From CAVPRW01 sp046727435 [NCBI: bacterium] (GTDB lineage Bacteria > Tectomicrobia > Entotheonellia > J063), in contig JBKPCR010000330.1 in NCBI GenBank assembly GCA_046727435.1, positions 1 through 16,989 of the forward strand: a stretch of 16,989 nucleotides of DNA, written 5' to 3'. Below, piece by piece: positions 1 to 13,336 of this stretch. The number at the start of each line of letters is the position of its first letter. Position 1 is the stretch's first letter. The position numbers and the translations under genes were made by a program. Under the pieces are notes generated by a model that was not told where the DNA came from, ran no database searches, and was given only the letters and a program-made list of their open reading frames with translations.

Positions 1-4
1 TGCT

Positions 5-115
5 GTTTCAATCCCTTTCAGGGAATCTGCCCTTCTGCGGCAATCGCCCTGACCATCATCGGCGGTCAATACGCCTTCGTTTCAATCCCTTCCAGGGAAT
101 CTGCCCTTCTGCGGC
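5..115 (-). CRISPR. CRISPR array, distal segment (2 repeats, 1 full spacer)
   Basis: Two 37-nt repeats lie at 5-41 and 79-115, separated by a 37-nt spacer at 42-78. Read on the minus strand the repeat begins GCCGCAGAAGGG and ends GGGATTGAAAC, so it carries the ATTGAAAC tail that becomes the 5' handle of crRNAs in many type I and III systems. Transcription is therefore inferred to be leftward. The first copy differs from the other three in the window by one base (CCCTTTCAGGG instead of CCCTTCCAGGG). Sequence after 115 begins like a spacer but no further repeat follows; 116-276 holds no gene and leads into a transposase. The array may continue left of base 1. Identical repeats reappear at 11354-11462. 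Confidence 0.93.
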
Positions 116-276
116 ACCACCGCTGCAAACATGGCCAACACCTCCTTTACACCGGTGGGGAATTGCCCCGACTCGCGCAACGGCACCGTGCAGCGTGCGC
201 CCTTGACCCATGACACCAGCCCTCTGCTGTGCTATACATCCCTCGCTCAGAGGTTGAGAGCTGAGGAGCCACGTGG

Positions 277-1555
277 GTGCCAACCGACGACTTCGCGCAA
301 CTGCAACTCCACTTGGTCGACCAGACGCAATGGCGCTATGAAGTGATCCGGCCCATCGTCCTCTTTGCCGACCAGACGCCGCGCCAACGGGCGGATGAGA
401 CCGACACGCACCCCGCCACCGTGCGGACGCTCACCCGCCGGTTTCGGCAGCAGGGGATGGTGGGGCTCCTCCCGGAGGATGTGGAGGTCAGCGTCCGGGC
501 GGGAGCCGCGGGTGCCAGAGGCGGTGCGAGAGGAGCTGGATCGGCTCAAGGCGCTCTACGACGGCTTCCGCTATCACGACATCCCCCATGTGCCCTCACC
601 AGTGGGGAAGCCAGCCTCGGGGCCCCACCCGTACAAAGCGTCGCATCGCCATCAGTACTGGTTCATCGACGGGCGCCGCATGGACTTTGTGTTGGAGGGG
701 GTGCGGTGGTGGAGCCTCATCATCCTGGAGGGGTATTCACGGACGATGCTGGCCGGGATGATCGCCCCCACCGAGGCCACCTGGGTAGCGCTGATGGTCC
801 TCTATACCGCCTGTCTGCGCTATGGGGCGCCCGAACAGCTCGTGTCCGACAGTGGGGGCGCCTATACGTCGGCCGACTTTGAAGCCGTCTGTATGCGGTT
901 GCAGATCCACCATGAGACGATCGTCAGCACCCAGGGTGAGAGCTATCAAAACCTGATGGAGACCCACTTCAACATCCAGCGGCGCCTCCACGATTATCAG
1001 TTCTCGTTGGCCCGCACCCCCCTGGAGCTCGAGCGACGTCATCAAGCCTTCATCCACGTCTATAACCCGACGGCGCATCAGGGGTTCCTCCACGACCAGC
1101 GCCTCCCCCCGATTCCCCTCGAGGTCCTCGGGACCGCCAAGGGCCGCATCTATGCCCCGGAGGAGCTCGCCCGCCGCTTCTCGCATGCCCTTTTCCCACG
1201 GACGACGAATCGCCATGGCTGTGTCACCTTGCATAGCTACCACTTCTATGTCGAGGAAGGTCTCCCCCAGACGCAGGTGTTGCTGTGGGTGTCCGGCGAA
1301 CACTTGCGAGCCGCCTTTGACAACGTGGTGCTGGCCAAATATCGCTCTCGGTACGATTGGCGGGACCGGCACGTGAAAGATGTCCGCGATGGCGTGTTTC
1401 ATGCGACCCGCTTCGCGTCGCCCCAGGGCACGCTCATCCCGCTGACGTCCCAGGACTCCTTGGTGGTGTATCGGGCGAGGGCGGCAAGGCGTCTGAAGCA
1501 GTCGCTCCCCCCCACCCCGCAGTTGCTGCTGTTTGAGGTGGTGCAGACCGGGTAA
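277..1555 (+). pseudogene. rve/Mu-C-type DDE transposase, frameshifted and internally deleted
   Basis: The N-terminal part starts at GTG 277, eight bases after an AGGAG, and shows a helix-turn-helix region (HPATVRTLTRRFRQQG). Near 480-505 the reading frame shifts by one and the second frame carries the rest to 1555. The catalytic core shows the first Asp in YWFIDGRRMDF, the second in LVSDSGGAYTS and Glu in LMETHFNIQRR. It is followed by a beta-rich tail like the Mu transposase C-terminal domain (LHSYHFYVEEG, AAFDNVVLA). From memory of this family, about 130 residues normally lie between a motif like YDGFRY and DIPHVPSP; here they are joined directly near 575. The frameshift plus this probable deletion mean it is inactive. 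No clear terminal inverted repeats were identified. Confidence 0.85.
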
Positions 1556-1699
1556 GCGGGCCTCATGCCATACCGGTCGGGAGTCTGAATCGGTGAGGAT
1601 CCCATATGGCGGTGCAAGAGACGTGAGGAGAGCCGTGGCGTGGCTGTGCAGGTGTGTCCGTGCGTAGGTGAACTGATGGCGCTCGGATGGGCGCCCCTG

Positions 1700-2069
1700 C
1701 TTGCTCCGCATCCCCCTGCACGCGCAGTTGCACGGTCTCCCCGGGGTGCACGAGCAGCCCGGCGGCCCCACAGCTCGCGGCCGTCGCACCTGCCATGTGT
1801 TGAAACTGCACTTGTTGCCCGGTGGTGAGGTTCGTACAGCTCCCACGGCTCGGTGTCATTCCCACCACCGCGCCCCCGACATCCGTCGCACCCGTCTGCA
1901 TAGGGCCACGCACGCGCAGGGCGACCTGGTCCCCGGCGCTGACCGCCAAGCCCGCGGCCTCGCAGTCCCATGGGACCACCGGGTCGCTGAGCATCGCCGC
2001 CTGCCCGGTGGTGACGTTCTGGCAGACCACGGTGCCCGGCGTAAACCCGCTGACCCAGCCCCCGAGCGC
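1700..2069 (-). pseudogene. C-terminal repeat extension of the upstream beta-helix gene, after an in-frame stop
   Basis: Immediately after the TAA at 2070-2072 the same frame stays open and encodes two similar units, each with a TP..C.N.TTGQ stretch followed by C.AAGL.V..G..V.LRV.G. The first unit contains FTPGTVVCQNVTTGQ and WDCEAAGLAVSAGD; the second contains MTPSRGSCTNLTTGQ and SCGAAGLLVHPGE. The conserved spacing, the paired cysteines and frame continuity show that this was coding sequence continuous with the upstream gene. Homology fades near 1700 and the frame then runs into the end region of the neighbouring transposon. Internal start codons exist (for example 2030) but there is no reason to think it is translated alone. 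Confidence 0.72.
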
Positions 2070-3239
2070 TTACCCGGGCACTTCGACTTCATAGGCCCCG
2101 ATGTCGCAGGCGCCCCCGGCGGGTTGGGGCCGCGCCCGGCACCGCTGATCGCCGAAGACAGTCGTGCCACAGCCGTGGGCCCCCGAGGGGATGGCATCAA
2201 TCGCGGGGCTACCGGGGAGCAGGGGGTGCGTGAGGGTGCCGCCGCCGTTGTCCTGCAGGGGCCCGAGCAATGGATCGGTCCCCGGCAGGTCGGTGGGTTC
2301 GGTCAGCTGGCAGCTGGTATCACTATCCAGGTTGTAGCCCGTAGAGGTAACCGTACTGGAAGCGTGGTGGCAGTCCCGACTCAGTAGGTTGCTGGCCACG
2401 ATGCTCTGGGTGAGGGTCAGCGTGCCGTAGATGTTATAGAGGCCGCCGCCATACGAAGCGGTATTGCCGCTGACCGTAGTGTTGATTAGCGTCAGCGTGT
2501 CTCCGTTGCAGAGGCCGCCGCCATACGAAGCGGTATTGCCATGGACGGTGCTCTGGGTGAGGGTCAGCCGACCCCGGGCGTTGAGGAGGCCACCGCCGCC
2601 GGTGAAGGCGGCACTGTCGCTGACGGTGCTGTGGGCGACGATCAGCGTGCCCCAGTTGATAAGGCCGCCGGCGCCATAGGAAGCGGTATTGCCGTGGACG
2701 GTGCTCTGGGTAAGGGTCAGCGTCCCACGGTTGATGAGGCCGCCGCCGTCCGACGTGGTATTGCCGCGGATGGTACTCTGGGTGAGGGTCAGTGTCCCAT
2801 CGTTCCGAATACCGCCGCCCTCCCCCCTAATCGCACGACCATAGCGAATTGTCAGGTCCTGGAGGGTCGCGGTGACACCGCTGGCGATGGTGAACACGCG
2901 GTCGGTGGCCGTGCCGCGGGTGGCCGCCGCCTGCACGATGGTGGTGGCCGCTGCCTCCCCCTGCAGCGCCAGGCTCTTATTCACGGCAATGCCGGCTTCG
3001 GTATACGTCCCGGCCGCGATCGCCAGCGTGTCGCCGTCGCGGGTCGTCGGCGCGGCGATAGCTACTTTGATACTCGTGTAGTCACAGCCGCTGGCGCACA
3101 CCGTCCAGGTCGTGGCCGCCTGCGCCGCGAGGCTCACGCCAACACTCAAGGCCAGACATACCAGTAGGGCTATGAGCCCCCACTGTGACAGGACACGGCC
3201 TGGTGAGGTGACCGAACCGGGGCACGTCTGTGGCATCAT
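2070..3239 (-). CDS. secreted right-handed beta-helix protein with choice-of-anchor-Q-like C-terminus
   Basis: The 389-residue product starts at ATG 3239 with a GGGAGGA ribosome-binding site eight bases upstream. A signal peptide (hydrophobic stretch about residues 22-40, cleavage near AAQA-AT) predicts export. The centre, about residues 120-290, is a run of 22-26-residue repeats built on GTLTLTQSTVHGNTAS and GGGL.N, typical of parallel beta-helix surface proteins. The C-terminal part contains DNGGGTLTHPLLPGSPAID, GCGTTVFGDQRC and CDIGAYEVE, the pattern of the choice-of-anchor-Q family of secreted proteins. No enzymatic residues are recognised; a surface or adhesin-like role is only inferred. 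The frame continues past its TAA into further repeat domains, so the gene is probably truncated by a nonsense mutation. Confidence 0.85.
   Translation of the reverse strand: MMPQTCPGSVTSPGRVLSQWGLIALLVCLALSVGVSLAAQAATTWTVCASGCDYTSIKVAIAAPTTRDGDTLAIAAGTYTEAGIAVNKSLALQGEAAATTIVQAAATRGTATDRVFTIASGVTATLQDLTIRYGRAIRGEGGGIRNDGTLTLTQSTIRGNTTSDGGGLINRGTLTLTQSTVHGNTASYGAGGLINWGTLIVAHSTVSDSAAFTGGGGLLNARGRLTLTQSTVHGNTASYGGGLCNGDTLTLINTTVSGNTASYGGGLYNIYGTLTLTQSIVASNLLSRDCHHASSTVTSTGYNLDSDTSCQLTEPTDLPGTDPLLGPLQDNGGGTLTHPLLPGSPAIDAIPSGAHGCGTTVFGDQRCRARPQPAGGACDIGAYEVEVPG
2400..2830 (-). repeat. tandem coding repeats of the beta-helix domain
   Basis: DNA-level tandem repeats with a period of about 69-78 bp underlie the beta-helix coils. 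For example, the 28-bp stretch at 2441-2468 recurs exactly at 2513-2540 (72 bp apart), and the segment GACGGTGCTCTGGGT recurs at several units. Such repeats can recombine, so coil number may vary between strains or be collapsed in assembly. Confidence 0.8.
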
Positions 3240-3622
3240 CGCGTCCTCCCTTAGCAGACAATGGAGAGACCGGTGGAGCCCCGTGTGGCAGGCTCCACGT
3301 CCTGGAACCGACGGGTCTACGGCCCTGAGAAGAGGGGTTCAGAGGTACGTGGGGCATGCGGAGCTGACCGCACGCGGTCAGACGGAGGGGGGCCGGATCA
3401 GCGTCGACGGGCGGCAGGGTGCGACCCCTTCGCTGGGGCAACCATGGCGATCGCGTGGCGACGCAGGAGCGGCAAGCCTATCAGTACGCATGATAGACGG
3501 GCGTTAACATAGCAAATGAAGTCATTAATACTCAATATAAATCTTTTTAGGTATGATTGAGACGCTTCGTATGGCTGCAAGGTGAGCCGGCTTCAGTCCG
3601 CACTGGTGTAAAGGAAAATGGG
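3240..3622 (-). promoter_or_regulatory. upstream region of the beta-helix gene: candidate promoter and two hairpins
   Basis: This 383-bp stretch holds no convincing gene. An AT-rich patch (about 3500-3560) in otherwise GC-rich DNA contains a minus-strand sigma70-like pair: TTGAGT at 3535-3530 and TATGTT at 3511-3506, separated by 18 bp. The predicted leader then contains two perfect hairpins, 3364-3381 (7-bp stem CTGACCG/CGGTCAG, 4-nt loop) and 3273-3298 (8-bp stem GTGGAGCC/GGCTCCAC), before the ribosome-binding site at about 3243-3249. The hairpins could stabilise or regulate the message; neither has a following T-tract. Confidence 0.45.
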
Positions 3623-3751
3623 TCTTCGTCGAATGGCATTAAGTTAAGCCCGAAACAGAGTCGAAATCGCGAAGTTGTTGAGCTGTAAGTCTCTGAATTT
3701 ACTATAGCCTGCCACTTTGGCTTTTCCTAACTTAATGCCATTCGACGAAGA
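3623..3751. mobile_element. MITE-like 129-bp palindromic element
   Basis: A perfect 24-bp inverted repeat occupies 3623-3646 and 3728-3751 (outer end TCTTCGTCGAATGG, inner end GCATTAAGTTA), with an 81-bp centre lacking any gene. The terminal sequence closely resembles the end of the IS4-type element further right (at about 9868-9900, read in reverse), so this is best read as a non-autonomous derivative mobilised by an IS4-like transposase. No target-site duplication could be confirmed by eye. Confidence 0.7.
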
Positions 3752-3825
3752 GCCGACATCCTCTACACCGGTGGGGAATGAAGCCGACCGCATGCAGAGG
3801 TGCGAACACCTTGCCGCGCATACGA

Positions 3826-3919
3826 TATAATACGCTCTCACGGTGAATACGTGAGCGCTGGTATGGGGGCTCGACATGTGGCCCCATCTCCAGGTATCAG
3901 GGCATATCGGCCTGATACG
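3826..3919 (+). promoter_or_regulatory. -10 box and structured leader upstream of the DUF3500 gene
   Basis: A consensus TATAAT lies at 3826-3831, but only a weak -35 candidate is visible. Three hairpins follow in tandem: CTCACG/CGTGAG (3837-3842 with 3850-3855), ATGGGG/CCCCAT (about 3863-3868 with 3882-3887), and GTATCAGG/CCTGATAC (3894-3901 with 3911-3918). This would give an mRNA leader of about 150 nt with a ribosome-binding site (AAGAAGGA) just before the start at 3993. The structure is seen; a regulatory role is inference. Confidence 0.45.
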
Positions 3920-3992
3920 CCATGGTGAGGCGTGGCGCCAGCCATCAGGGTATTTCTGAAACATCACCCATACACAAGAGGACAAGAAGGAC

Positions 3993-5249
3993 ATGCCAAT
4001 GACCATCAGGCCACACACGCGGATCATCAAGACGTGGTTCGTGCTTCTCACCGGTGGTTCCCTGCTCATCGGCCTCCTTTGCTATGGCATCATCTTGCAG
4101 GCGCAGCAGCCGTCAGGTGATCGCGCGGAGCGGGCCCAGCGCCAGTCGAAGGAAGCCGAAGGTAAGGGTTTGGCGGAGCCGTTCAAGGGCCTCACGACGG
4201 ATGGCACGCTGGTCCCAGGTCTCTTTCCTCTACGCTCAACCGGCGTGTCCACCGAGCCGGTCCGTCAAGCCGCAGATGCGTTCCTCGCGTCGTTGACCCC
4301 GGAGCAGCGTGCCAACACCATGTTTCCGGTGGACGACCCGGAATGGCGCAAGTGGATGAACCAGGATTTCTACGTTCGACAGGGCGTGAGCTTTCAAGAG
4401 ATGACCGAGGGTCAACGCGAGGCCGCCATCGGGTTGCTGCGCGCCTCGCTCAGCGCCAAGGGGTTGCAGCTAACGCGCGACATCATGCGGCTGAACCACA
4501 CGTTGGGCGAGCTCAACAACAACGATTTTGAACGGTACGGCGAATGGTTCTACTGGATCACCGTGATGGGCATACCATCAGCCAACGAGCCCTGGGGATG
4601 GCAACTCGACGGGCACCACGCGATCATCAACTACTTTGTGTTGGGCGATCAGGTGGTGATGACGCCGACGTTCTTCGGCTCCGAGCCGGTGCGTGCCCAC
4701 GCTGGCAGGTACCAAGGGACCACCGTGCTCCAGGACGAGCAGAACCAGGGACTGGCGATGATCAACGCCCTCACCGACGCCCAGCGGGCCAAGGCGATCA
4801 TTCGCATGTCTAAAACCGGGAACAACATCATGGCCCAAGCGTTCAAGGACAACCTCGTCCTCGAGTCCGTGGGGATTCGTGCGTCGGAGCTTGCGGCCGA
4901 ACAGCAACTGCAGTTGCTCGCATTGATTCATGCCTATGTCAGGAACATGGACGATGGGCATGCGACGGTAAAAATGGACGAGGTCCAGCGACACCTCGAC
5001 CACACGCATTTCGCCTGGATCGGCGGGACAGAGCCGACGAGCGTCTTCTATTACCGCATCCAGAGTCCCGTGCTGCTCATCGAGTTCGATCATCAATTGC
5101 CCGTGGGCTTGCGCCACCTTGCGTCCGATCCGCAGGTGGTCGATCGCGAGCACATCCACACCGTCGTGCGCACGCCAAATGGCAATGACTACGGCAAGGA
5201 TCTCCTGCGGCAGCATTACGAAATCCACCCCCACCCCCATAATCACTAA
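3993..5249 (+). CDS. DUF3500 family protein, membrane-anchored or secreted
   Basis: An intact 418-residue protein with a strong ribosome-binding site directly before ATG 3993. Residues 1-13 are basic and 14-37 form one hydrophobic segment, giving an uncleaved anchor or signal sequence, so the bulk acts outside the cytoplasmic membrane. The DUF3500 signature is clear: FYWITVMGIP and WGWQLDGHHAIINYFVLGD (about 186-220), TPTFFGSEP (224-232), then near the C-terminus YYRIQSPVLLIEFDHQ (353-368) and HIHTVVRTPNGNDYGKDLL (387-405). Many His and Asp residues sit in these blocks (H208, H209, D366, H367, H387, H389), so a metal-dependent role is possible, but the biochemical function of the family is unknown to me. 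It stands alone, between a structured leader and a strong 3' hairpin, and is one of the few undamaged genes here. Confidence 0.9.
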   Translation: MPMTIRPHTRIIKTWFVLLTGGSLLIGLLCYGIILQAQQPSGDRAERAQRQSKEAEGKGLAEPFKGLTTDGTLVPGLFPLRSTGVSTEPVRQAADAFLASLTPEQRANTMFPVDDPEWRKWMNQDFYVRQGVSFQEMTEGQREAAIGLLRASLSAKGLQLTRDIMRLNHTLGELNNNDFERYGEWFYWITVMGIPSANEPWGWQLDGHHAIINYFVLGDQVVMTPTFFGSEPVRAHAGRYQGTTVLQDEQNQGLAMINALTDAQRAKAIIRMSKTGNNIMAQAFKDNLVLESVGIRASELAAEQQLQLLALIHAYVRNMDDGHATVKMDEVQRHLDHTHFAWIGGTEPTSVFYYRIQSPVLLIEFDHQLPVGLRHLASDPQVVDREHIHTVVRTPNGNDYGKDLLRQHYEIHPHPHNH

Positions 5250-5273
5250 TGATGACTTTCGCTTTTCAAACAC

Positions 5274-5307
5274 GCCGCACGCTGGGCCTGCAGGTCCAGC
5301 GTGCGGC
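5274..5307 (+). terminator. GC-rich hairpin after the DUF3500 gene
   Basis: A perfect 12-bp stem (GCCGCACGCTGG/CCAGCGTGCGGC) encloses a 10-nt loop that itself contains the palindrome CCTGCAGG. It starts 24 bases after the stop codon at 5249. The stability and position fit a transcription terminator, but no run of T follows on the plus strand, so termination may be Rho-assisted or the hairpin may simply protect the 3' end. Confidence 0.5.
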
Positions 5308-5347
5308 CACAAATTACAGACGCTCGCCACGCACGCTGGAACCGTTC

Positions 5348-5500
5348 CCCACCCTGCTGGAGTACGACATGAGCGAAAATGCGCTGCGCACCGAGCTCGC
5401 GCAAGAGCCTATTCGCCACAGCGGCGGCATCGTCGCCGTGCCGCAAGGGCCGGGCCTCGGTATTGAGATCGACCGTGAGGTGCTTCAGAAATACTGCTAA
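5348..5500 (+). pseudogene. C-terminal fragment of a mandelate racemase/muconate lactonizing (enolase superfamily) enzyme
   Basis: The last 50 codons of the frame ending at 5500 read LLEYDMSENALRTEL...PIRHSGGIVAVPQGPGLGIEIDREVL, the typical C-terminal end of enolase-superfamily dehydratases and racemases. The barrel with its catalytic Lys/His and metal-binding Asp/Glu residues is absent; sequence left of about 5345 shows no homology and contains the hairpin following the DUF3500 gene. It is therefore a remnant cut by a rearrangement. It converges on the dehydrogenase gene at 5615 and was probably part of the same sugar-acid or hydroxyacid catabolic region. The 114 bp between 5501 and 5614 hold nothing recognisable. 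Confidence 0.8.
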
Positions 5501-5614
5501 CCCCCGCCCGCGCATTACTACAAAAAGCCGGAGGAGATACCGCACCAGCGCGCGACGCGTGGGATGCTTCCGGCGCCGCAGAGCCAGAAGTCGACGCTCA
5601 GCCTGTATGCGCAC

Positions 5615-6577
5615 TCAGCCTTTGAACGAGACCGGAGACGGAAGCGGCTTTCCCGCAAAATACGCGTTCAAATTAGAGAGAATCATCGCCGTCGCTGTGG
5701 TGCGCGCCTCCGGTGCGCGTCCGGCGATGTGCGGCGTGACCACCACGCTGTCGAATTGTTGAAGCTCCGGAAGCTGCGGCGGTACGTTCGGTTCGCCCTC
5801 GACCACATCGAGGCCTGCCCCCGCAATGCGCTTCGATCGCAGCGCATCGATCAGGGCCGCTGTATCTATAACCGTACCGCGTCCAATGTTGACGACATAT
5901 CCTTTCGGCCCGAGCGCCGTGAGAACGTCCGCGTTGACGAGATGTCGCGTCCCCGCGCCGCCGGGCGCGGCGCAGATCAGGAAATCGGCCCACGTTGCCA
6001 GCTCGATGAGACTGTCGAAATATCGATAGGAAGATCCGGTGACGGCCTTCCGGTTGTGATAGCCGATCTCCATGTCAAAACCGCGCGCGGCGCGGTGCGC
6101 GATCTTGTTGCCGATTGTTCCAAGACCGAGAATGCCCAGACGCTTGCCGGAAATAGTCGGGGTGTCGACACGCCATTGCTCCTGCCATCCGCCGGCGCGC
6201 ACGAAGCGATCGGCCTGAAGCAGGTGCCGGGTCGTTGCCATCAACAGCATCATGGCGGAGTCGGCGACAGCAGATGCGTTCGTGTCGGGGCAATTGGCGA
6301 CCGCGATGCCCCGGGCCCGGGCCTTGTCAAGATCGACAGCCTCATAGCCTGCGCCGACGGTGCACACGATCTCGAGATTCGGAAGCAATTCCATCTCGTC
6401 GCCGCTCAAGCCCCCACGGCCATTGGTCAGAACGGCCCTGACGGTATCGCCTGCCTCGCGAACGGCGTCTATCCGGTTTGCATACTTCTTCCCCTCGCGA
6501 ACGGCGTAGCCGGCGGCGGTCAGTGCGGCCGCGCGTTCAGGCGCGAGTCCCACGAGAGCCAGGACACCAATGTTCAT
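5615..6577 (-). CDS. D-isomer-specific 2-hydroxyacid dehydrogenase (NAD(P)-dependent)
   Basis: A complete 320-residue protein, the usual length of the family, starting at ATG 6577 after a GGAGGGA ribosome-binding site. It should reversibly reduce 2-oxoacids such as glyoxylate or hydroxypyruvate to D-2-hydroxyacids in the cytoplasm. The Rossmann motif GLGTIG is at 151-156. The catalytic triad is present: Arg233 in NIGRG, Glu262 in VVEGEP and His283 in TPHIAG; the substrate-loop region VGAGYEAVD is at 74-82. The gene follows the damaged hydrolase by 14 bp on the same strand, implying co-transcription. It is the only apparently functional member of this catabolic cluster. The longer open frame reaching to 6922 has no homology upstream of 6577. 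The exact substrate cannot be told from sequence. Confidence 0.9.
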   Translation of the reverse strand: MNIGVLALVGLAPERAAALTAAGYAVREGKKYANRIDAVREAGDTVRAVLTNGRGGLSGDEMELLPNLEIVCTVGAGYEAVDLDKARARGIAVANCPDTNASAVADSAMMLLMATTRHLLQADRFVRAGGWQEQWRVDTPTISGKRLGILGLGTIGNKIAHRAARGFDMEIGYHNRKAVTGSSYRYFDSLIELATWADFLICAAPGGAGTRHLVNADVLTALGPKGYVVNIGRGTVIDTAALIDALRSKRIAGAGLDVVEGEPNVPPQLPELQQFDSVVVTPHIAGRAPEARTTATAMILSNLNAYFAGKPLPSPVSFKG

Positions 6578-6591
6578 GGCTGCTCCCTCCT

Positions 6592-7189
6592 TCAAGCCAT
6601 CGCGGGCCGATGCGCCCGCAGGAAAGAGCGTACCTGGCGGACTGCCACGGGAATCTTGTCCTTGGAGTCCTTCCACGGAAAGAGGCTCACTTCGGACTTC
6701 GGCGCGAGCATCACGGACTCCATGGCGATGGTATACGCGTGCGACGGGGAGTCGTCCGGCATGACCAGCACGGGCGCCTGGCAGGAACGCACGAAATCGC
6801 GCGACACGGTGTAAACGAAATCGGCGGCGGCACCGCGGTACATCCGGGTAAGAAAGCGATCGACCTCGAGCGGGCCGGAGGACTGGCCGCTGTAGGCGTT
6901 GCGCAAGTCGGCAGTAATGCAACGATACTCGTTTCTGAACTCCTCCACCGGATTGAACGGCGCGCCCTTAGTGTTCCAGGCGATCGTCGAATTCAACCCG
7001 CCGCCGGGAATGAGGAGCAATGCGAAGCCGGAGCCAGCTTCTTCGTAGTGGATGCGAACGTTTCCTTTTTCGTAGAACGGCATGGCAGTTTCCCCTTTCC
7101 CGGTGCGTTGTGCGAATGCGCGCGGCGGCCGCGACCGCCGCTGCCGCCGCCGCGCCCGTTGTCAGCAGGGTGCGTCTCTTCGAATCCAT
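6592..7189 (-). pseudogene. alpha/beta hydrolase with Tat-like signal, frameshifted and lacking its nucleophile region
   Basis: ATG 7189, preceded by AAGGGGGAGA, starts a twin-arginine-like leader (MDSKRRTLLTTGAAAAAA). A one-base frame change near 7110-7125, in the GCC-rich tract, separates it from the mature frame, which continues from about 7115 (AQRTGKGETAMPFYEKG) to the TGA at 6592. The mature part begins with the oxyanion-hole loop LLLIPGGGLN and ends with PVLVMPDDSPSHAY and FPWKD, the late strand and acid/His region of the fold. From memory of close relatives, about 80-90 residues including the nucleophile elbow are missing between SSGPLEVDR and FLTRMY (near 6860). At 163 residues from ATG 7083 it is far short of about 280. 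It lies 39 bp downstream of the receptor fragment and 14 bp before the dehydrogenase. Almost certainly inactive. Confidence 0.78.
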
Positions 7190-7228
7190 ACGTCTCCCCC
7201 TTGATGAACGCGTTTCGTTTGGCAGAAC

Positions 7229-7640
7229 TCACTGCTGCTCGACGCCGGCGGCCTTGAGCGCCGTCTTCCAGACCGCGATCTGCTCCTTCATGTAAACCGC
7301 GAGCGCTTCAGGCGTGGATGATTTCGCCATGAAGCCGTGTCTCAGCATGAGATCCTTGACCATAGGCTTGCCCAGAACCGCGACCATCTCCTTGTTCATG
7401 CGCGCGACGATCTGGCGCGGCAGACCGGCGGGGCCGCCCAGGGCGAACCACGGACCGATCGGGAGCTTGGCCTGGCCCGTCTCCGGGAACGATGGCACGT
7501 CGGGCATCAACGGGCTGCGCTCGTTTAAAGTCCTCGCAAGTACCCTCAGCTTGCCCTCCTTCACGTGCGCCGAGACGCTTGTATTGGTGCCAAACAACAG
7601 CTGGACGCGGCCGGACAGCAGGTCGAGCATGGCCCCCTCC
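7229..7640 (-). pseudogene. C-terminal half of a tripartite tricarboxylate transporter substrate-binding protein (Bug family)
   Basis: Homology begins at about 7640 with AMLDLLSGRVQLLFGTNTS and runs to the TGA at 7229. It includes GKLRVLARTLNERSPLMPDVPSF, the highly characteristic ET.......PW.AL..PAGLP segment and a C-terminal helix. Bug proteins are periplasmic receptors of about 320 residues that deliver carboxylates to TctAB-type transporters. Here the signal peptide and first domain are gone, and the DNA upstream of 7640 is unrelated GC-rich sequence. The reading frame remains open to 7684 but those extra codons show no homology. It heads a minus-strand set (receptor, hydrolase, dehydrogenase) consistent with uptake and catabolism of an organic acid. 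Confidence 0.82.
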
Positions 7641-7897
7641 AGCCTTGCCACGTCGCCTGTCCCGCGGCCGTCCCCCCAAGGCACCCCAACGGCTCTACCC
7701 TACCGCATGCGGCGGCGCCTGTCCAGCACCCGCCACAGGCGCGCGCCGCCGCGCTGGCGGGTGGCCACGGCGCGCTGGGAGCACGGCGGGGTCGCCGCGG
7801 GGGAGCGCTGAGGCGGGTGCAGCCGGCGGGGCAGCGCAAAAATGCCGTTTGAATTTCCTATCCGCCTCGCGCAGGGCTGCAAAAAAGTGGCGAGACC
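7641..7897. other. GC-rich stretch without a recognisable gene
   Basis: All frames give low-complexity Arg/Ala/Pro-rich translations typical of non-coding GC-rich DNA. The only structure found is a 30-bp sequence at 7834-7863 that recurs at 10291-10320. This stretch probably replaced the first half of the Bug receptor gene. Confidence 0.5.
7834..7863 (+). repeat. 30-bp direct repeat, copy 1
   Basis: Matches 10291-10320 at 28 of 30 positions (core AAAATGCCGTT and GAATTTCCTATCC). Both copies end a GC-rich non-coding stretch, suggesting the conserved end of a degenerate mobile or intergenic repeat family. Confidence 0.6.
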
Positions 7898-7926
7898 TTG
7901 AACACTTTTTTTCCACACGCTACAGT
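7898..7926 (+). promoter_or_regulatory. sigma70-type promoter for the ribbon-helix-helix gene
   Basis: TTGAAC at 7898-7903 and TACAGT at 7921-7926 are separated by exactly 17 bp. Directly downstream, at about 7928-7950, TTGCAG is repeated (TTGCAGATATTGCAGCTTGCA), which could be an operator for the small DNA-binding protein encoded 50 bp further on, allowing autoregulation. Confidence 0.6.
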
Positions 7927-7977
7927 TGTTGCAGATATTGCAGCTTGCATTTGACGCCATCCACAGGAGTACGCGCT

Positions 7978-8169
7978 ATGCCGCAGACGCGCAACGTCGG
8001 CTTCCATCTAGATCCGGAGATCCACAAACGCGCCAAGATTCTGGCTGTGAGTGCAGGCGTACCGCTCCATCGGTGGGTGGAACGAGTCGTCAAAGAGGCA
8101 GTGCACACACAAAACCAAGTTTTAGTGGAGCTGAATACAACGACAGGTATGAAGACGAGTAGTAATTAG
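7978..8169 (+). CDS. small ribbon-helix-helix DNA-binding protein (HicB-tail/Arc-like)
   Basis: A 63-residue protein from ATG 7978 with AGGAG eight bases upstream. Residues about 6-38 fit the ribbon-helix-helix fold: a short beta strand (VGFHLDPEI), a helix with HKRAKILAVSAG, a turn and a second helix (PLHRWVERVVKEAV), as in HicB C-termini and other antitoxin-type regulators. It should bind DNA as a dimer. No toxin gene is adjacent: left is non-coding and right is an IS. The TAG stop at 8167-8169 coincides with the first bases of the inverted repeat of the neighbouring element, so the original C-terminus may have been cut by insertion. Role as orphan antitoxin or stand-alone regulator is unresolved. 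Confidence 0.72.
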   Translation: MPQTRNVGFHLDPEIHKRAKILAVSAGVPLHRWVERVVKEAVHTQNQVLVELNTTTGMKTSSN

Positions 8170-8233
8170 GTGTAGCGACCCGAGAATATAAACGGCTCTG
8201 CCCGAAAACATCGTAGTTTCATGCCCACATTAA

Positions 8234-8396
8234 GGCTCTTGGCCACTTTTGGTGAAACGGGGTAGTTTGGAGGTCTCGCAACGTTTTCCTGTCCACAGGA
8301 AGATAGGGAAGACCGCGCTGTTACTGAGGAAAAGTCCCTCCATTCCCCTCGTTGAGGTTCCTGTGCTCTCGACTTCACCAAAAGGGGCCAAGAGCC
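8234..8396. mobile_element. 163-bp MITE-like palindromic insert within the left IS end
   Basis: The ends 8234-8256 and 8374-8396 are inverted repeats matching at 22 of 23 bases (GGCTCTTGGCCACTTTTGG outward). The centre has no open frame of note but contains a small perfect hairpin TTCCTGT/ACAGGAA near 8286-8301. Comparison with the right end of the IS, where the equivalent sequences are contiguous, shows this block is extra at the left end. Confidence 0.55.
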
Positions 8397-8514
8397 GAAG
8401 GGCATTAAGTTAGGCAGAACTCACGATCTTTATCGGGTGCCATGGATGTTGGTGTCTTCAACCATCTCCTGTATGTCTATGGTATCAGATACCCCGCATA
8501 CAGGAGGGCACCGG

Positions 8515-9874
8515 ATGGTCCCGAGCATCAACACTATACTGCAACGCTTCTCAAGTGAGTGGGCCGCGTTGCTGCAACCCGACGCCATCCTCACGGTGTG
8601 CCGCGACATTGGGTATACCGCATGGCGCGACCGCGTCCTTACGCCGGTCACCACCGTACAGCTGTTCCTGCTACAGATTCTGCGTGGCAATACTGCCTGC
8701 AGCCATCTCCCCCATCTGTCGGGCATACGGTTCAGTGCGGCGGCCTACTGTCAAGCCCGCGCCAGACTCCCGCTGCGCTTTTTTGACCTCCTCTTGGAGC
8801 GCTTCGGCAGCGCGGTGCAGCAATCCGCCTTGGACGACGGGCGATGGCATGGCCACCGCACCTTTTTGGTCGATGGCTCGGGCTGCTCCATGCCCGATAC
8901 GCCTGCGTGACAAAAGGCGTTTGGCCAGCCGTCGGAGCAACGGCCTGGGTGCGGCTTTCCCGTCGCCCGCCTCCTGGGGCTGTTCCATGCCGGCAGCGGT
9001 GTGCTCCTCAAGCTGGTCATCGCGCCTCTCCTCACCCACGACCTTGCTCAAGTGCAGGCGGTGCATCCGAGCTTACAAGAAGGACATGTACTGGTGGCCG
9101 ATCGGGGTCTGTGTTCATATGCCCATGTGGCCCTCCTCGTCCAGGCCGGCGTGCACGCCGTGCTCCGCGTCGGCGCGCCAGATTGTGGCTTTCACACCGG
9201 GCCGGCCCTTTGTCAGGCCGAGCGTGCGGCGGACGTCTGCCGTCAAAGGCGTGCCACGGTCCCGCTGGCTCAAAGCGCTCGGTGTCCATGACCAACTCGT
9301 GATGTGGTTGAAACCAAAAACCTGCCCCTCGTGGCTTTCCCGTGAGACCTTAGCGGCCCTACCCGAGTCGTGAGTGCTCCGAGAGTTGCGCTACGCCATC
9401 GGCCGCCCGGGCTTCTGGACCCGCCAGATCACCCTGGCGACCACGCTCCTCGACGCGGAAAGCTACCGTGTGGCCGACCTTGCCGAGTTGTACCGCCAGC
9501 GCTGGCAGGTTGAAACCGCACTGGCGCAGCTCAAGACCACGATGCAGATGGATGTGCTGCACTGTAAAACGGTACCAGGCGTGCTGAAGGAACTCACCGC
9601 CTTCGCCATCGTCTACAACCTGGTCCGGATGGTCATGTGCCAATCAGCCAGACTCCAACACCTCGGCGTAGAGCGGATCAGCTTTCTAGATGCGCTGCGG
9701 TGGCTTGGCGCGCCGAGCAGCGGGAGCCCGTTAGGAGTGTTGATCATCATCCCCATCCGACCGCACCGAGTGGAGCCGCGCGTCAAGAAACGACGGCCCA
9801 AGAGCTTCCCGTTTATGGTCAAACCCCGGCAAGCACTGCGTCAGCAGTTGGTCCAGCAAGAGCCCAGAGGCTAA
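8515..9874 (+). pseudogene. IS4 family transposase, interrupted by two stops and a frameshift
   Basis: ATG 8515 follows AGGAGGG by six bases. Joining frames gives a protein of about 450 residues, normal for the family. The first part contains FLLQILRGNTAC and the region with the first catalytic Asp (FLVDGSGCSMPDTPA). A TGA at 8908-8910 interrupts it, after which the same frame continues (QKAFGQPSEQRPGCGFPVA) through the second Asp (VLVADRGLCSYAH). A one-base frame change occurs near 9175-9185, a second in-frame TGA lies at 9371-9373, and the last segment holds the YREK-like signature YRQRWQVETALAQLK with catalytic Glu, ending at 9874. With three lesions it is dead. Confidence 0.85.
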
Positions 9875-9891
9875 CTTCATGCCATTCGCGC

Positions 9892-9965
9892 AAGAGCCCA
9901 AATGTGGGCTGAAAACTGCGATGTTATCGGGCAGGACGATGTACGTTATCGCGCCGTTACAACTA
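9892..9965 (-). repeat. right inverted-repeat arm of the IS4-type element
   Basis: Reverse complement of 8167-8240 with about 55 of 74 positions matching by eye. The best blocks are AAGAGCC, AATGTGGGC, CGATGTT and TCGGGCAG. Confidence 0.6.
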
Positions 9966-10290
9966 GGGGCTAGGGTGGATCGCAGTGAAGTGGCGAGTGA
10001 CAAAAAAGGTGAAGTCAGCAGCGCTCATCGCGTGTGCATCCGCCCTCCCGGCGGCCCCAAGCCCGTCACCCAGCCGCCTGCGCTGGCTGCACAAAGCGGC
10101 GGCCGCTGGCACCGTGGCGTACGCGAGCGGTGGACAAGGCCGTAGACTCTGCGCCTTGCTGCGGGCCGCTGCGCCGGGCTGCAGCGGGGTGCTGGGGACG
10201 CCGCCATCGCTCTGAGTGCCGTGGGGCCGCTGGCGGACGACGCTGGGATGCCCCAAGGGCGTTTTCGGGGGTTGCCCTCCGGAAGGGCCG
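9966..10290. other. GC-rich stretch without a recognisable gene
   Basis: Translations in all frames are Arg/Ala/Pro/Gly-rich without family resemblance. It resembles 7641-7833 in composition and, like it, ends in the 30-bp repeat (10291-10320). No promoter or terminator stands out. Confidence 0.45.
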
Positions 10291-10320
10291 GCGCTAAAAT
10301 GCCGTTGGAATTTCCTATCC
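10291..10320 (+). repeat. 30-bp direct repeat, copy 2
   Basis: 28 of 30 bases match 7834-7863, in the same orientation and 2,457 bp apart. It is followed at once by a partial tandem duplication (TTTCCTATCC twice, 10311-10330). Confidence 0.6.
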
Positions 10321-10376
10321 TTTCCTATCCTTAATTGACGCGACATGCCGGTTCCGTCGCGGTGGAGGCCGGGCTT

Positions 10377-10940
10377 ATGGACAGCGTGACAATTCTGGGC
10401 CGGACGATTCCCGTCGAGTACCTCGTCGGAGCCGGCGGCGGCGCCCTTGACCAGGCGGCGCTGTTCGCCGGCCTGCAGGAGGCAGCCGCCCTGATCAACA
10501 GCGTCGGGACCTGGACGGGCGACGAGCGCGAGGCGTTGTCAGCGATGAACAAGATCGTCTTCTTCTCCGGCGAGATCGTGGTGAACACCTGGAAGCTCAC
10601 CCGTCCTGGCTGTGACGAGGATGACGCGATCTTCTACTGGGAGGCGGTGGAGTTCATGGCGAACACCGACGCCGACGTGCGCGCGAACACCTTCTTCCAT
10701 GACTGCTGGCATGTGATCCAGTTCCGCCGGGATGGCGGCTTCGCCCAGACGGACGAGATCCGGGTCGAGCGTGAGGTCGATGCGATCAGCCGGCAGATCG
10801 AAGCGGCCAGCAAACTGGGGTGCGTCGACCGCGAGGTCGCGCATCTGCAGAAGTACCTCGACGAACATGTGCTGATCGTGGCGCGGCTGGCCGAGGGCAT
10901 CGACCGGATGGATCACGCCCAACCTATCGCCCGCGCCTAG
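10377..10940 (+). CDS. hypothetical protein with HDxxH motif (possible metal-binding or zincin-like)
   Basis: A 187-residue protein; ATG 10377 is chosen because GGTGGAGG lies about eight bases upstream, although the frame is open from a TTG at 10335. I do not recognise a family. It has no signal peptide or membrane segment and is acidic and helix-rich. The notable feature is FFHDCWHVIQF (106-116), an HxxxH motif, followed 19-21 residues later by the glutamates of EIRVEREVDAISRQ (E131, E133). This spacing recalls zincin proteases (HExxH plus a downstream Glu), but the catalytic Glu is Asp here. It ends 12 bp from a converging GMC oxidoreductase remnant. Coding is supported by length, ribosome-binding site and a non-repetitive sequence. 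Confidence 0.65.
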   Translation: MDSVTILGRTIPVEYLVGAGGGALDQAALFAGLQEAAALINSVGTWTGDEREALSAMNKIVFFSGEIVVNTWKLTRPGCDEDDAIFYWEAVEFMANTDADVRANTFFHDCWHVIQFRRDGGFAQTDEIRVEREVDAISRQIEAASKLGCVDREVAHLQKYLDEHVLIVARLAEGIDRMDHAQPIARA

Positions 10941-10952
10941 GTCGCTCGCCGG

Positions 10953-11147
10953 CTAGGCCGCTCTTGCCTCGTACACCGGCGCGTCGTCCGCCGGCAGGAA
11001 GGCCCTGCCGCGGATGGCGTCGGAGACCTTCTCGGCGATCATGATCGTGGGGGCGTTGGTGTTGCCGCCGACCAGGGTGGGCATCACCGAAGCATCGACG
11101 ACGCGCAGGCCCGAAAGCCCCTGGACCCGGCAGTCACCATCGACCAC
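10953..11147 (-). pseudogene. C-terminal fragment of a GMC (choline dehydrogenase-like) oxidoreductase
   Basis: The fragment reads [19 protein letters not shown] then [20 protein letters not shown], the near-invariant C-terminal end of FAD-dependent GMC oxidoreductases, including the GNTNAP segment close to the flavin. Only about 64 residues of some 530 remain. The FAD-binding N-terminus and substrate domain are missing, and the DNA beyond 11147 is unrelated. It is a rearrangement remnant, not a functional gene. Confidence 0.85.
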
Positions 11148-11288
11148 CCGTTAGGTCAAAAAACTCAACCGCGTTATTTTCCAAGAGGTTACAGCCCTGC
11201 CATGACGTGCTCTTCATCTTGAATTCCATCTCATTATGCTCCATACTCCCCGGCAATGTGAGAGACTGCGATGGAGGTGGCACGACGC

Positions 11289-11312
11289 ATGGATTGGAAA
11301 CAATTGTTGGCG
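11289..11312 (+). pseudogene. extreme N-terminal remnant of an rve-type transposase beside the CRISPR array
   Basis: ATG 11289, preceded by GGAGGTGG, encodes MDWKQLLA, which resembles the conserved first residues of a widespread integrase-core transposase group (as recalled, MNWKHLLAYITGSVDQ). After these eight codons similarity stops and a TGA follows at 11338. The 41 bp from 11313 to 11353, directly before the next CRISPR repeat, are of spacer size. The rest of 11148-11288 shows nothing recognisable and is probably the IS end and flanking debris. Confidence 0.4.
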
Positions 11313-11353
11313 CAGGCGGGACGGACATACCACGGCTGAAAAGTATGAGCGCT

Positions 11354-11462
11354 GTTTCAATCCCTTCCAGGGAATCTGCCCTTCTGCGGCGTCCCATCAA
11401 GGCCATTCATCGTCGCCATGAACGTGTTTCAATCCCTTCCAGGGAATCTGCCCTTCTGCGGC
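11354..11462 (-). CRISPR. CRISPR array, leader-proximal segment (2 repeats, 1 full spacer)
   Basis: Repeats at 11354-11390 and 11426-11462 are identical to each other and to the copy at 79-115; the spacer at 11391-11425 is 35 nt. The orientation is the same as at the left end of the window: crRNA sense on the minus strand, ending ATTGAAAC. Because cas2 and the leader lie to the right, 11426-11462 is the leader-proximal repeat and 11391-11425 would be the most recently acquired spacer. Confidence 0.93.
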
Positions 11463-11690
11463 TGGTTGTCTCTCCAGTGCTGTATTTTCAGGCTAATAGC
11501 TCCCAATGCGCTAGCATCTCCGCCGAAGGTGTCTAAAAGCCATCGCAGCATCGGTGGCATGAGCGTCTCATATCCCATTAAACTCTGGCATGTCAATCGT
11601 TTTTTCATTTCCTAGCGTCCCCAGAGCATTTCCTGACAGCTTCGATGCTTGGCAAGATTGTCAAAAAAAAGCCCCACCATTGAGGAAGTC
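11463..11690 (-). promoter_or_regulatory. CRISPR leader with minus-strand promoter
   Basis: This 228-bp stretch separates cas2 from the first repeat and contains no gene. On the minus strand TTGACA (11596-11591) and TATGAG (11572-11567) are spaced by 18 bp, a good sigma70-type promoter pointing into the array about 100 bp before the first repeat. A- and T-runs occur near 11600-11610 and 11664-11671. The position relative to cas2 and the repeat polarity make it the leader. Confidence 0.65.
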
Positions 11691-11966
11691 CTATAAAACC
11701 ACTGGCCCATCGTCTCTCGGAGTGATCCCGCCGATGCGGTCGATCTTTCGCTGACGGCTGTCACATAGATGATAGAAGCGCACACTGTCTTGATCCTCTT
11801 CTTTGATAATCCGTTTGAGCGCATGCTGCATGCGAAGGAGCTGCTCTTTCGTTAAGTCACATTCAAACACGCTGAACTGTATGCGCTCACCGAAGTTTTT
11901 TAAGACCTTGTGGATACGATTCCGCCGCTTATCGTCATGGATGTCATACGACACGACAAGGTACAT
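11691..11966 (-). CDS. cas2: CRISPR-associated endoribonuclease/adaptation protein Cas2
   Basis: A 91-residue protein, the standard Cas2 size, starting at ATG 11966 with an AGAAGGA-type ribosome-binding site. A longer frame from 11993 adds nine residues without homology. It opens MYLVVSYDIHDDKRRNRIH, with the conserved metal-binding Asp8 at the end of the first ferredoxin-fold strand. GERIQFSVFECDLTKEQL follows, then a C-terminal part with RFYHLCDS and the basic residues RQRKIDRIGG. In spacer acquisition the Cas2 dimer bridges two Cas1 dimers and holds the prespacer. It appears intact, but its partner cas1 just upstream on the same strand is truncated, so it can only work with a Cas1 encoded elsewhere. 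Confidence 0.95.
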   Translation of the reverse strand: MYLVVSYDIHDDKRRNRIHKVLKNFGERIQFSVFECDLTKEQLLRMQHALKRIIKEEDQDSVRFYHLCDSRQRKIDRIGGITPRDDGPVVL

Positions 11967-12040
11967 GTGTAGTCCTTCTTCGAAAACCACCAAATCAGCG
12001 TCAGAGCTTTCAGCCGACAGGCTCCTGACCGGTCAGAATC

Positions 12041-12297
12041 TCACTTGGTCATCAACGGTGGGTAGGCGTCGAGTTCCCCCTGGAGGAATTTCCCCAGTAG
12101 TCTCGCCTGTAGCTCGAAACAGCGTTGATAGGTCATGCGGTAACCAAAGACGGGATGCTTGAACTCAGTGTTCTTACGCTCTTCATACTGCAGGAGGAAA
12201 CGCCGACGGGCATCGGGGTTGAGCCGATGTGCTCCCCCTAGCTCCACATCAAAATCATCCTGCTGCATGATGCGTTTATTGATGCAGGTCAATACCC
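12041..12297 (-). pseudogene. cas1: C-terminal remnant of cas1
   Basis: The last ~84 codons read VLTCINKRIMQQDDFDVELGG..., with EERKNTEFKHPVFGYRMTY and QARLLGKFLQGELDAYPPL, the typical helical C-terminus of Cas1 in type I/III loci. Cas1 integrase is normally about 330-345 residues, and its Glu, His and Asp metal ligands lie in the central part, which is missing here. Homology stops at about 12297; the open frame continues to 12445 with unrelated residues. It ends 74 bp upstream of cas2 on the same strand, the expected cas1-cas2 order. The break explains why no cas3, cas4 or effector genes are seen to the right. Confidence 0.88.
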
Positions 12298-12606
12298 TGC
12301 TGGAATGGCACGCCATAGCCGTCCGCAGGGTCTGGGATCTTGTGCTGCTGTCGCTGGCCCTGACCATAGGTACTGCTACAGCCTCGTCGTTCTCTTGCTG
12401 ATGTGTACCTGGATTATCCTCATTGCTGCAGGATTGTCTTCTCACGGCACCACTCTTGCCTCAGTTCAGAGAGTCAATGACTGGTATGCCCCCGTGCGGT
12501 CCTGACACAGACCGCCATCACACCTGGCACCGAACGCGATGAGGAGCGACCCTCAAGTCGCTCCTCGAGCGCACGGTCATCACTTGAGAGGAGCGATGGG
12601 AGGAGA
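12298..12606. other. intergenic stretch with a strong hairpin, no clear gene
   Basis: Short open frames on both strands show no family resemblance. One plus-strand frame (12305-12505) has a hydrophobic segment LVVLLLMCTWIILIAAG and could be a membrane-protein tail, but it has no convincing start. A perfect 10-bp hairpin at 12541-12566 (GAGGAGCGAC/GTCGCTCCTC, 6-nt loop) lies 40 bp before the next gene. It may be a terminator or a leader structure. Confidence 0.4.
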
Positions 12607-12821
12607 ATGACCAAGATGCGTTTGTTCGTCGTGGTCGCGCTCCTGTGCAGTGCATGGGCGGGACTCGGCTGGACGCAGACCTTGCGGGTCGTAGGGTTCA
12701 ACGTGGAATCAGGCGGGGCGTGCCCCGATGTCGTGCATGATCTCATCGCCGCAGCGCAGGACGTGGATCTGTGGGGCTTCTCGGAGGTGCAAGACGCGAT
12801 CTGGGCCACGATGTTTGCGCA
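12607..12821 (+). pseudogene. N-terminal fragment of a secreted endonuclease/exonuclease/phosphatase-family protein
   Basis: About 70 codons remain. A signal peptide (MTKMRLFVVVALLCSAWAGLGWTQ; the start could also be ATG 12616, better spaced from GGGAGGAG) is followed by LRVVGFNVESGG and VDLWGFSEVQD. These match the N-terminal strand with its Asn and the metal-binding Glu of the EEP fold (as in DNase I-like enzymes). The frame then passes directly into IS6 transposase sequence at about 12815-12822, so the insertion removed most of the catalytic domain. The fused open frame continues to 12921. Loss of the remaining His/Asp/Asn residues means no activity. Confidence 0.72.
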
Positions 12822-13336
12822 TCAACTGCGACGCCGACGTCCTCGACCCGGCTACAAATGGCATCTTGATGAGGTCTTTCTGACGATCAACGGCGCGCCA
12901 GTATCTCTGGCGCGCCGTTGATCAAGACGGGAATGTGCTCGACATCTTGGTCCAGCCTCGGCGTGACCAGGGGGCCGCAAGGAAATTCTTCCGCAAGCTG
13001 CTGAAATGATGCCGATACGTGCTCAGGGTGATCATCACCGATAAGCTGGCGAGCTATGGCGCGGCGAAGCGGGAACTCCTACCCAGTGTCGAGCATTGGC
13101 AGCACCGCTATCTCAACAAGCGCGCGGAGCACTCGCACCAGCCGACCCGCCAGCGGGATCGGCGCACGTAGGGGTTCAAATCAGCGGGGTATGCGCAGCG
13201 CTTCTTGGCCGCTTATGGTATCATCGCCCAACACTTCCGATCGAGACGCCACCGGCTCTCTGCCCCCGCGGATCGCCAAGTCATGGCCAAACGATTTCAG
13301 AGCTGGCACGCAGTCACGGGAACTGCAGCAGCATAA
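12822..13336 (+). pseudogene. IS6 family transposase remnant
   Basis: Starting at RRRRPRPGYKWHLDEVFLT, the sequence matches the DDE domain of IS6/IS26-type transposases, with Asp in HLDEVF, Asp in IITDKLASYG and Glu in NKRAEHSHQPTR. A one-base frame change near 12900 moves the reading from the exonuclease frame to a second frame that runs to the TAA at 13334-13336. In that frame a TGA at 13007-13009 and a TAG at 13169-13171 interrupt it. The N-terminal zinc-finger/HTH part (about 70 residues) is absent. The 153 bp from 13337 to the next gene include AATAAGTTGACAATGCC near 13394-13410, perhaps the IS end. Confidence 0.82.

What the first reader, a model, noticed from the sequence alone, without database searches (positions are those of the whole stretch)
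5..11462. One CRISPR array apparently split by about 11.2 kb of mobile and captured DNA
Four copies of the same 37-nt repeat occur in the same orientation, two at the left edge (5-41, 79-115) and two beside leader and cas2 (11354-11390, 11426-11462). Between them lie transposases, two MITE-like elements and pieces of metabolic genes. If this is one array, a CRISPR locus has served as a landing site for serial insertions, and spacers left of the block are cut off from the leader promoter unless transcribed from within the insert.
Basis: partly seen in the sequence, partly recalled or inferred. Interest (0 to 1): 0.62.

Follow-up and report, generated by a model that had tools for sequence, protein, structure and literature searches.

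The report
Decayed CRISPR array split by transposons
A decaying bacterial CRISPR immune locus of a known type appears to have had its memory array broken apart by transposons and gene debris, which is a known fate of such loci and not a new system.

Summary
The repeats are real: four 37-nt copies in one orientation at 5-41 (one mismatch), 79-115, 11354-11390 and 11426-11462. They look like the remains of a type I-D CRISPR locus. Cas2 scores best as Cas2d; Cas1 is reduced to its last ~85 residues. In 7 of 7 measured relatives Cas2 is followed after 201-301 nt by 37-nt repeats in the same orientation; here the gap is 228 nt. So the right pair is the leader end.

The left break looks like an insertion into a spacer: an IS481-like element with inverted ends at 143 and 3615 starts 27 nt after a repeat, while spacers in those relatives are 31-40 nt. 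The right break is unexplained: no matching element end, inverted repeat or target duplication was found. One array split by insertion and later rearrangement is the best reading, not proven: no host genome is held and no intact array was found.

The 'landing site' idea is weak, because the cas side of the window is also full of IS elements and gene fragments. Mobile elements inside CRISPR arrays are already described (PMC3119063, PMC7708916).

The parts
5..41 (+). CRISPR repeat (37 nt), one C-to-T change; leader-distal side; first base of the window is 4 nt before it
42..78 (.). complete spacer, 37 nt
79..115 (+). CRISPR repeat (37 nt), consensus
116..142 (.). 27 nt between repeat and transposon end; read as the stump of a cut spacer (inference)
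143..3615 (.). putative transposon: facing 19-nt ends at 143-161 (+) and 3597-3615 (-) around an IS481-like transposase and a choice-of-anchor Q protein gene
365..1555 (+). IS481-like (rve) transposase ORF; the apparent start of the gene (277) is in another frame, so probably broken
   Evidence: IS481 model 37.3 bits, below its cut-off of 224
2070..3239 (-). choice-of-anchor Q domain protein
   Evidence: 71.3 bits, cut-off 25
3620..3754 (.). MITE-like unit with ends like those of the IS4-family element
   Evidence: I2, I8, D10; exact limits by eye
3759..3777 (+). third copy of the 19-nt transposon end, partner not found in the window
3993..5249 (+). DUF3500 protein gene, domain complete
   Evidence: model 2-297 of 297
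5354..5500 (+). C-terminal scrap of an enolase-superfamily gene (approximate start)
   Evidence: MR_MLE_C 176-218 of 219, 29.3 bits against a cut-off of 29.4
5615..6580 (-). D-2-hydroxyacid dehydrogenase gene, looks complete
6592..7083 (-). ORF read by eye as an alpha/beta-hydrolase-like remnant; no family match
   Evidence: no hit
7229..7684 (-). C-terminal half of a TctC receptor gene
   Evidence: 144-273 of 274
8234..8396 (.). MITE-like unit with 23-nt inverted arms (96%)
8437..9874 (+). IS4-family transposase, broken into several frames
10335..10940 (+). ORF of unknown family
   Evidence: no significant hit
10953..11147 (-). last 37 residues of a GMC oxidoreductase
   Evidence: 103-139 of 139
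11148..11353 (.). unidentified DNA between the GMC scrap and repeat 3
   Evidence: no hit
11354..11390 (+). CRISPR repeat (37 nt), consensus
11391..11425 (.). complete spacer, 35 nt, the leader-proximal one
11426..11462 (+). CRISPR repeat (37 nt), first repeat after the leader
11463..11690 (-). presumed leader, placed by comparison with 7 relatives
11691..11993 (-). cas2 (best as Cas2d)
12041..12301 (-). cas1 stub: C-terminal ~85 residues, closest to type I-D Cas1 in NCBIfam
12805..13330 (+). broken IS6-family transposase on the cas1 side (approximate limits)

Best explanation
This is the wreck of one type I-D CRISPR-Cas locus in an unidentified, IS-rich bacterium. The array read from right to left (minus strand) from a leader next to cas2. 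An IS481-like transposon entered a spacer near the leader end. Further insertions, recombination between element copies and capture of chromosomal scraps then widened the gap to 11.2 kb and erased the matching right end. The cas operon was also cut off inside cas1. With cas1 gone the locus cannot take up spacers by itself; the leader has one complete spacer directly next to it, and the left repeats are stranded. Shown: the repeats and their orientation, Cas2 and Cas1 identity, the Cas1 truncation, the facing element ends at 143 and 3615. Inferred: that left and right repeats were once one array, the order of events, the capture, and the loss of function.
For: Same 37-nt repeat in one orientation on both sides. 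Layout of cas2, gap, 37-nt repeats and orientation as in 7 of 7 measured relatives. Transposon end 27 nt after repeat 2, shorter than the 31-40-nt spacers of those relatives. Facing ends around a transposase ORF. The one variant repeat (5-41) is on the presumed leader-distal side. Cas1 kept only over model positions 250-333 of 334.
Against: No element end, inverted repeat or target duplication at the right junction; the longest word shared by the two edges is 5 nt, reached by 191 of 300 shuffles. The pattern was written from the three copies it finds, so only its shuffle control carries weight. No intact array or host found. The transposon has no target duplication visible by eye at 143/3615. 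The left neighbourhood is cut off at base 1.
Confidence: 0.65

Rival explanations
1. Two separate small arrays with the same repeat, either neighbours from the start or brought close by rearrangement. The DNA beside repeats 2 and 3 is then array flank and not cut spacer.
For: The right junction shows no sign of an insertion, and the window is rearranged throughout.
Against: A transposon end only 27 nt from repeat 2 fits a cut spacer better; within the window there is only one cas2 and one presumed leader. I did not search the left side for a leader beyond base 1, which is not available.
Confidence: 0.17
2. Assembly join: the two repeat pairs come from different places, or different genomes, joined through the 37-nt repeat.
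For: Both edges of the block lie at repeats by definition, the window begins 4 nt before a repeat, and neither coverage nor reads could be seen.
Against: A 37-nt repeat is short for a false join in most assemblies (general knowledge); the transposon end so near repeat 2 is explained better by an insertion.
Confidence: 0.12
3. A circular mobile element carrying its own mini-array recombined with the chromosomal array through the shared repeats, so that the whole block entered in one step.
For: Both sides of the block are bordered by the same repeat in the same orientation, and no target duplication is seen.
Against: No replication, conjugation or phage gene was recognised among the block ORFs scanned; the content is IS and gene scraps. 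The repeat was not found in viral contigs.
Confidence: 0.04

Closest known systems
Residual CRISPR of Haloquadratum walsbyi HBSQ001 (PMC3119063; passages seen)
   Same: A CRISPR remnant with a MITE inserted within a spacer near the leader end, in a strain that has lost its cas genes.
   Different: There a single MITE; here an 11.2-kb composite block, with cas2 and a cas1 stub still present.
[quoted passage not shown] passages seen)
   Same: IS copies split the array, and recombination between IS copies leaves edges that do not match.
   Different: One IS of 1355 bp, up to three copies in the CRISPR-Cas locus; different CRISPR type; known population history.
IS insertions in cas genes (PMC10359306; passages seen)
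   Same: IS activity inactivates CRISPR-Cas.
   Different: 28 natural insertions in cas genes; there the IS interrupts effector genes, here the array is cut.
   Same: Cas2 53-58% identical in the six best matches, 37-nt repeats ending GGGATTGAAAC, same layout.
   Different: Repeat differs from this one at 14-17 of 37 positions; 11-17 repeats seen within the fetched flank.

Membership tests
CRISPR array | Near-identical direct repeats with unique spacers of similar length | tested here: met
   4 repeats of 37 nt, spacers 37 and 35 nt; only 2 repeats per side in the window
CRISPR array | Leader and adaptation genes beside one end | tested here: met
   cas2 228 nt from repeat 4, layout as in 7 of 7 measured relatives
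CRISPR array | Spacers match foreign DNA | tested here: inconclusive
   no exact 22-nt match in viral contigs for the two spacers; phages: none for 38-152, weak match E 0.4 for spacer 11391-11425
Type I-D CRISPR-Cas | Cas1d and Cas2d | tested here: inconclusive
   Cas2 best as Cas2d; Cas1 stub best as type I-D in NCBIfam but at 96 of the 385 bits asked, and best as Cas1g then Cas1d in PADLOC
Type I-D CRISPR-Cas | Cas10d/Cas3 interference genes | tested here: inconclusive
   none recognised among the ORFs scanned; genes outside the window could not be seen
Insertion of a mobile element into a CRISPR array | Element end lies inside a spacer or repeat | tested here: met
   left side only: 27 nt after repeat 2
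Insertion of a mobile element into a CRISPR array | Matching element end and target duplication on the other side | tested here: not met
   none found at 11353/11354
Insertion of a mobile element into a CRISPR array | Empty site in a relative | not testable with these tools
   no host genome held; repeat absent from genome contigs and viral contigs

The most novel reading that the evidence does not exclude
The block is a composite mobile region that entered through the CRISPR repeats themselves: a mini-array on a mobile element recombined with the chromosomal array, so that repeats act as recombination ports for large pieces of DNA.
Probability: 0.04. Interest if true: 0.55.

Novelty: new member of a known kind. 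Interest (0 to 1): 0.2.

Why it matters
If the reading holds, it is a clear case of how a CRISPR locus dies in an IS-rich genome: adaptation lost with cas1 and most of the array cut from its leader. It also warns that array-finding programs would call this two tiny orphan arrays. It does not change what is known about CRISPR biology.

Tried and rejected
The same repeat elsewhere: a 34-nt exact pattern found nothing in genome contigs or viral contigs. The host, through relatives of two transposases: the IS701 protein gave 46 loci, the best 63% over residues 29-374 and 66% over 181-374. The IS481-like protein had no relative in viral contigs, matches of 31-37% in 4 plasmid records, hits in 2 of 13 genomes reached through the IS701 loci, and in samples of four groups hits in 13 of 201, 8 of 299, 4 of 247 and 11 of 246 genomes, none above 39% identity. 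The host stays unknown. A guess at a sponge-symbiont lineage (Entotheonella) was from memory; a paper search for it gave nothing used, and it plays no part in the argument.

Spacer targets: none convincing; the stump 116-142 was covered only. Promoters: 3 promoter-like sites in 1-12100 against a mean of 3.9 in shuffles; the only one on the minus strand (11262-11233) is 11 kb from the left repeats, and none was seen in the presumed leader either, so the scan has little power here. Rfam: no match at the gathering threshold. tRNA: none. Right junction: no inverted repeat, no further copy of the element end, no plasmid relative. The stretch 3480-8420 against plasmids gave 54 records; the 10 listed all lie over the 2-hydroxyacid dehydrogenase at 64-70% identity and say nothing about a mobile unit. 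A pattern for the MITE/IS4 ends hit one viral contig, judged a chance match on reading. PMC3718332 was looked at in passages and not used. The landing-site idea was set aside because the other side of the window is also broken.

Full report
Observation. On the strand of cas2 the repeat reads GCCGCAGAAGGGCAGATTCCCTGGAAGGGATTGAAAC. Three copies are identical and the one at 5-41 differs at one base. A 28-nt core finds the four copies and nothing else with up to 3 mismatches, and none of 200 shuffles gives a hit. The two complete spacers are 37 and 35 nt.

What the locus was. Cas2 (11691-11993, minus) matches the Cas2 families of Pfam and NCBIfam above their cut-offs and scores best as Cas2d in PADLOC. 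The ORF upstream holds only the last ~85 residues of Cas1. It scores best to the type I-D Cas1 model in NCBIfam, positions 250-333 of 334, far below the cut-off for a whole protein; in PADLOC Cas1g comes first and Cas1d second, and the Pfam match is just below its cut-off. No other cas gene was recognised among the ORFs scanned; not every small ORF was scanned. In a sample of 194 genomes of the group of G006 (the genome of a Leptolyngbya locus) 67 had a Cas2 match and the six best are 53-58% identical. In a sample of 301 genomes of the group of G001, which I take to be Chloroflexota because it holds the same places as the Herpetosiphon plasmids, 94 had a match and the best-scoring one is 48% identical.

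Of 12 fetched cas2 loci (L073-L084), 8 had an array that my script could see. I measured 7 of these 8 and left out L082, whose 5 visible repeats end in GCAAC. In 7 of 7 the array follows cas2 by 201-301 nt from the end of the match, with 37-nt repeats in the same orientation relative to cas2, spacers of 31-40 nt and medians of 35-36. The window fits: 228 nt, same orientation, 37-nt repeats. So the right pair of repeats is the leader end, and transcription would run leftwards (inference from layout).

The block. At 143 begins a 19-nt terminal motif found three times in the window (143-161 +, 3597-3615 -, 3759-3777 +). The pattern used was written from these three, which one search had already shown to be alike; the shuffles gave 0.01 matches on average. 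The first two copies face each other around an IS481-like transposase ORF and a gene for a choice-of-anchor Q protein. The transposase ORF is out of frame with the apparent start at 277. A MITE-like unit with ends like those of the IS4-family element follows. Then come DUF3500, an enolase-type C-terminal scrap just below its Pfam cut-off, a 2-hydroxyacid dehydrogenase, an ORF that I read by eye as a hydrolase remnant, half a TctC gene, a second MITE-like unit, a broken IS4-family transposase, an unknown ORF and the last 37 residues of a GMC oxidoreductase. GC3 is 0.72-0.89 for the block genes, 0.59 and 0.65 for cas2 and the cas1 stub, and 0.49 for the HEAT-repeat gene. But IS701 (0.82) and the Mg-chelatase-like piece (0.78), both outside the block, are as high, so composition does not prove a foreign origin, and 'captured' remains an inference from truncation alone.

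Junctions. On the left, 27 nt separate repeat 2 from the element end. That is shorter than any spacer measured in the 7 relatives, as expected if the element entered a spacer. On the right there is no such end. The 206 nt between the GMC scrap and repeat 3 have no inverted repeat, their ORF has no protein family and they have no relative in plasmids. The longest word shared by the two edges is 5 nt, which 191 of 300 shuffles also reach. So a clean single insertion is not shown. Recombination between element copies after insertion would explain unmatched edges; this is described for IS6110 in the M. tuberculosis CRISPR locus (PMC7708916, passages).

Is the CRISPR locus a landing site? The part of the window beyond cas2 also holds a broken IS6-family transposase (two of three pieces matched the NCBIfam IS6 model and one of two the Pfam model), an IS701 element, a piece of a Mg-chelatase-like gene and the cas1 break itself. 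I made no formal test of density, but the decay is plainly not confined to the array, so the array needs no special attraction for mobile DNA.

Function. With cas1 reduced to a stub this locus cannot acquire spacers unaided. The leader has one complete spacer next to it. No promoter-like site above chance was seen that would serve the left repeats, but the same scan saw none in the presumed leader, so it says little. Loss of function is inference; cas genes elsewhere in the genome could act in trans.

Novelty. Insertions of MITEs or IS elements in CRISPR arrays are in print: a MITE in a spacer of a cas-less remnant (PMC3119063, passages), IS6110 (PMC7708916, passages), and a review of earlier cases in the introduction of PMC10359306 (passages). 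Searches for split or interrupted arrays (the listings hold 25 of 30, 16 of 16, 7 of 7 and 25 of 134 papers) did not show me an 11-kb composite block, but I saw listings only and they are far from exhaustive. I rate it a new example of a known kind.

Noticed in passing
window 143-3615: An IS481-like element with facing 19-nt ends seems to carry a choice-of-anchor Q (beta-helix-like) protein gene as cargo.
   Followed up: partly
window 7828-7863 and 10285-10320: A 36-nt direct repeat (89%) borders the stretch with the second MITE-like unit and the IS4-family element; both copies sit beside very GC-rich DNA.
   Followed up: no
window 8167-8241 and 9891-9965: 75-nt inverted arms (75%) enclose the second MITE-like unit and the IS4-family element, as if one element were nested in another.
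   Followed up: no
window 12607-13330: An ORF with an unrelated-looking start runs into a broken IS6-family transposase with a frameshift and stops, next to the cas1 break.
   Followed up: partly
window 13490-14536: A HEAT-repeat protein gene with lower GC3 (0.49) than its neighbours.
   Followed up: no
window 11391-11425: The leader-proximal spacer has a weak match (query 7-34, 89.7%, E 0.4) to an rIIA-like region of six related Streptomyces phage records; probably chance.
   Followed up: no
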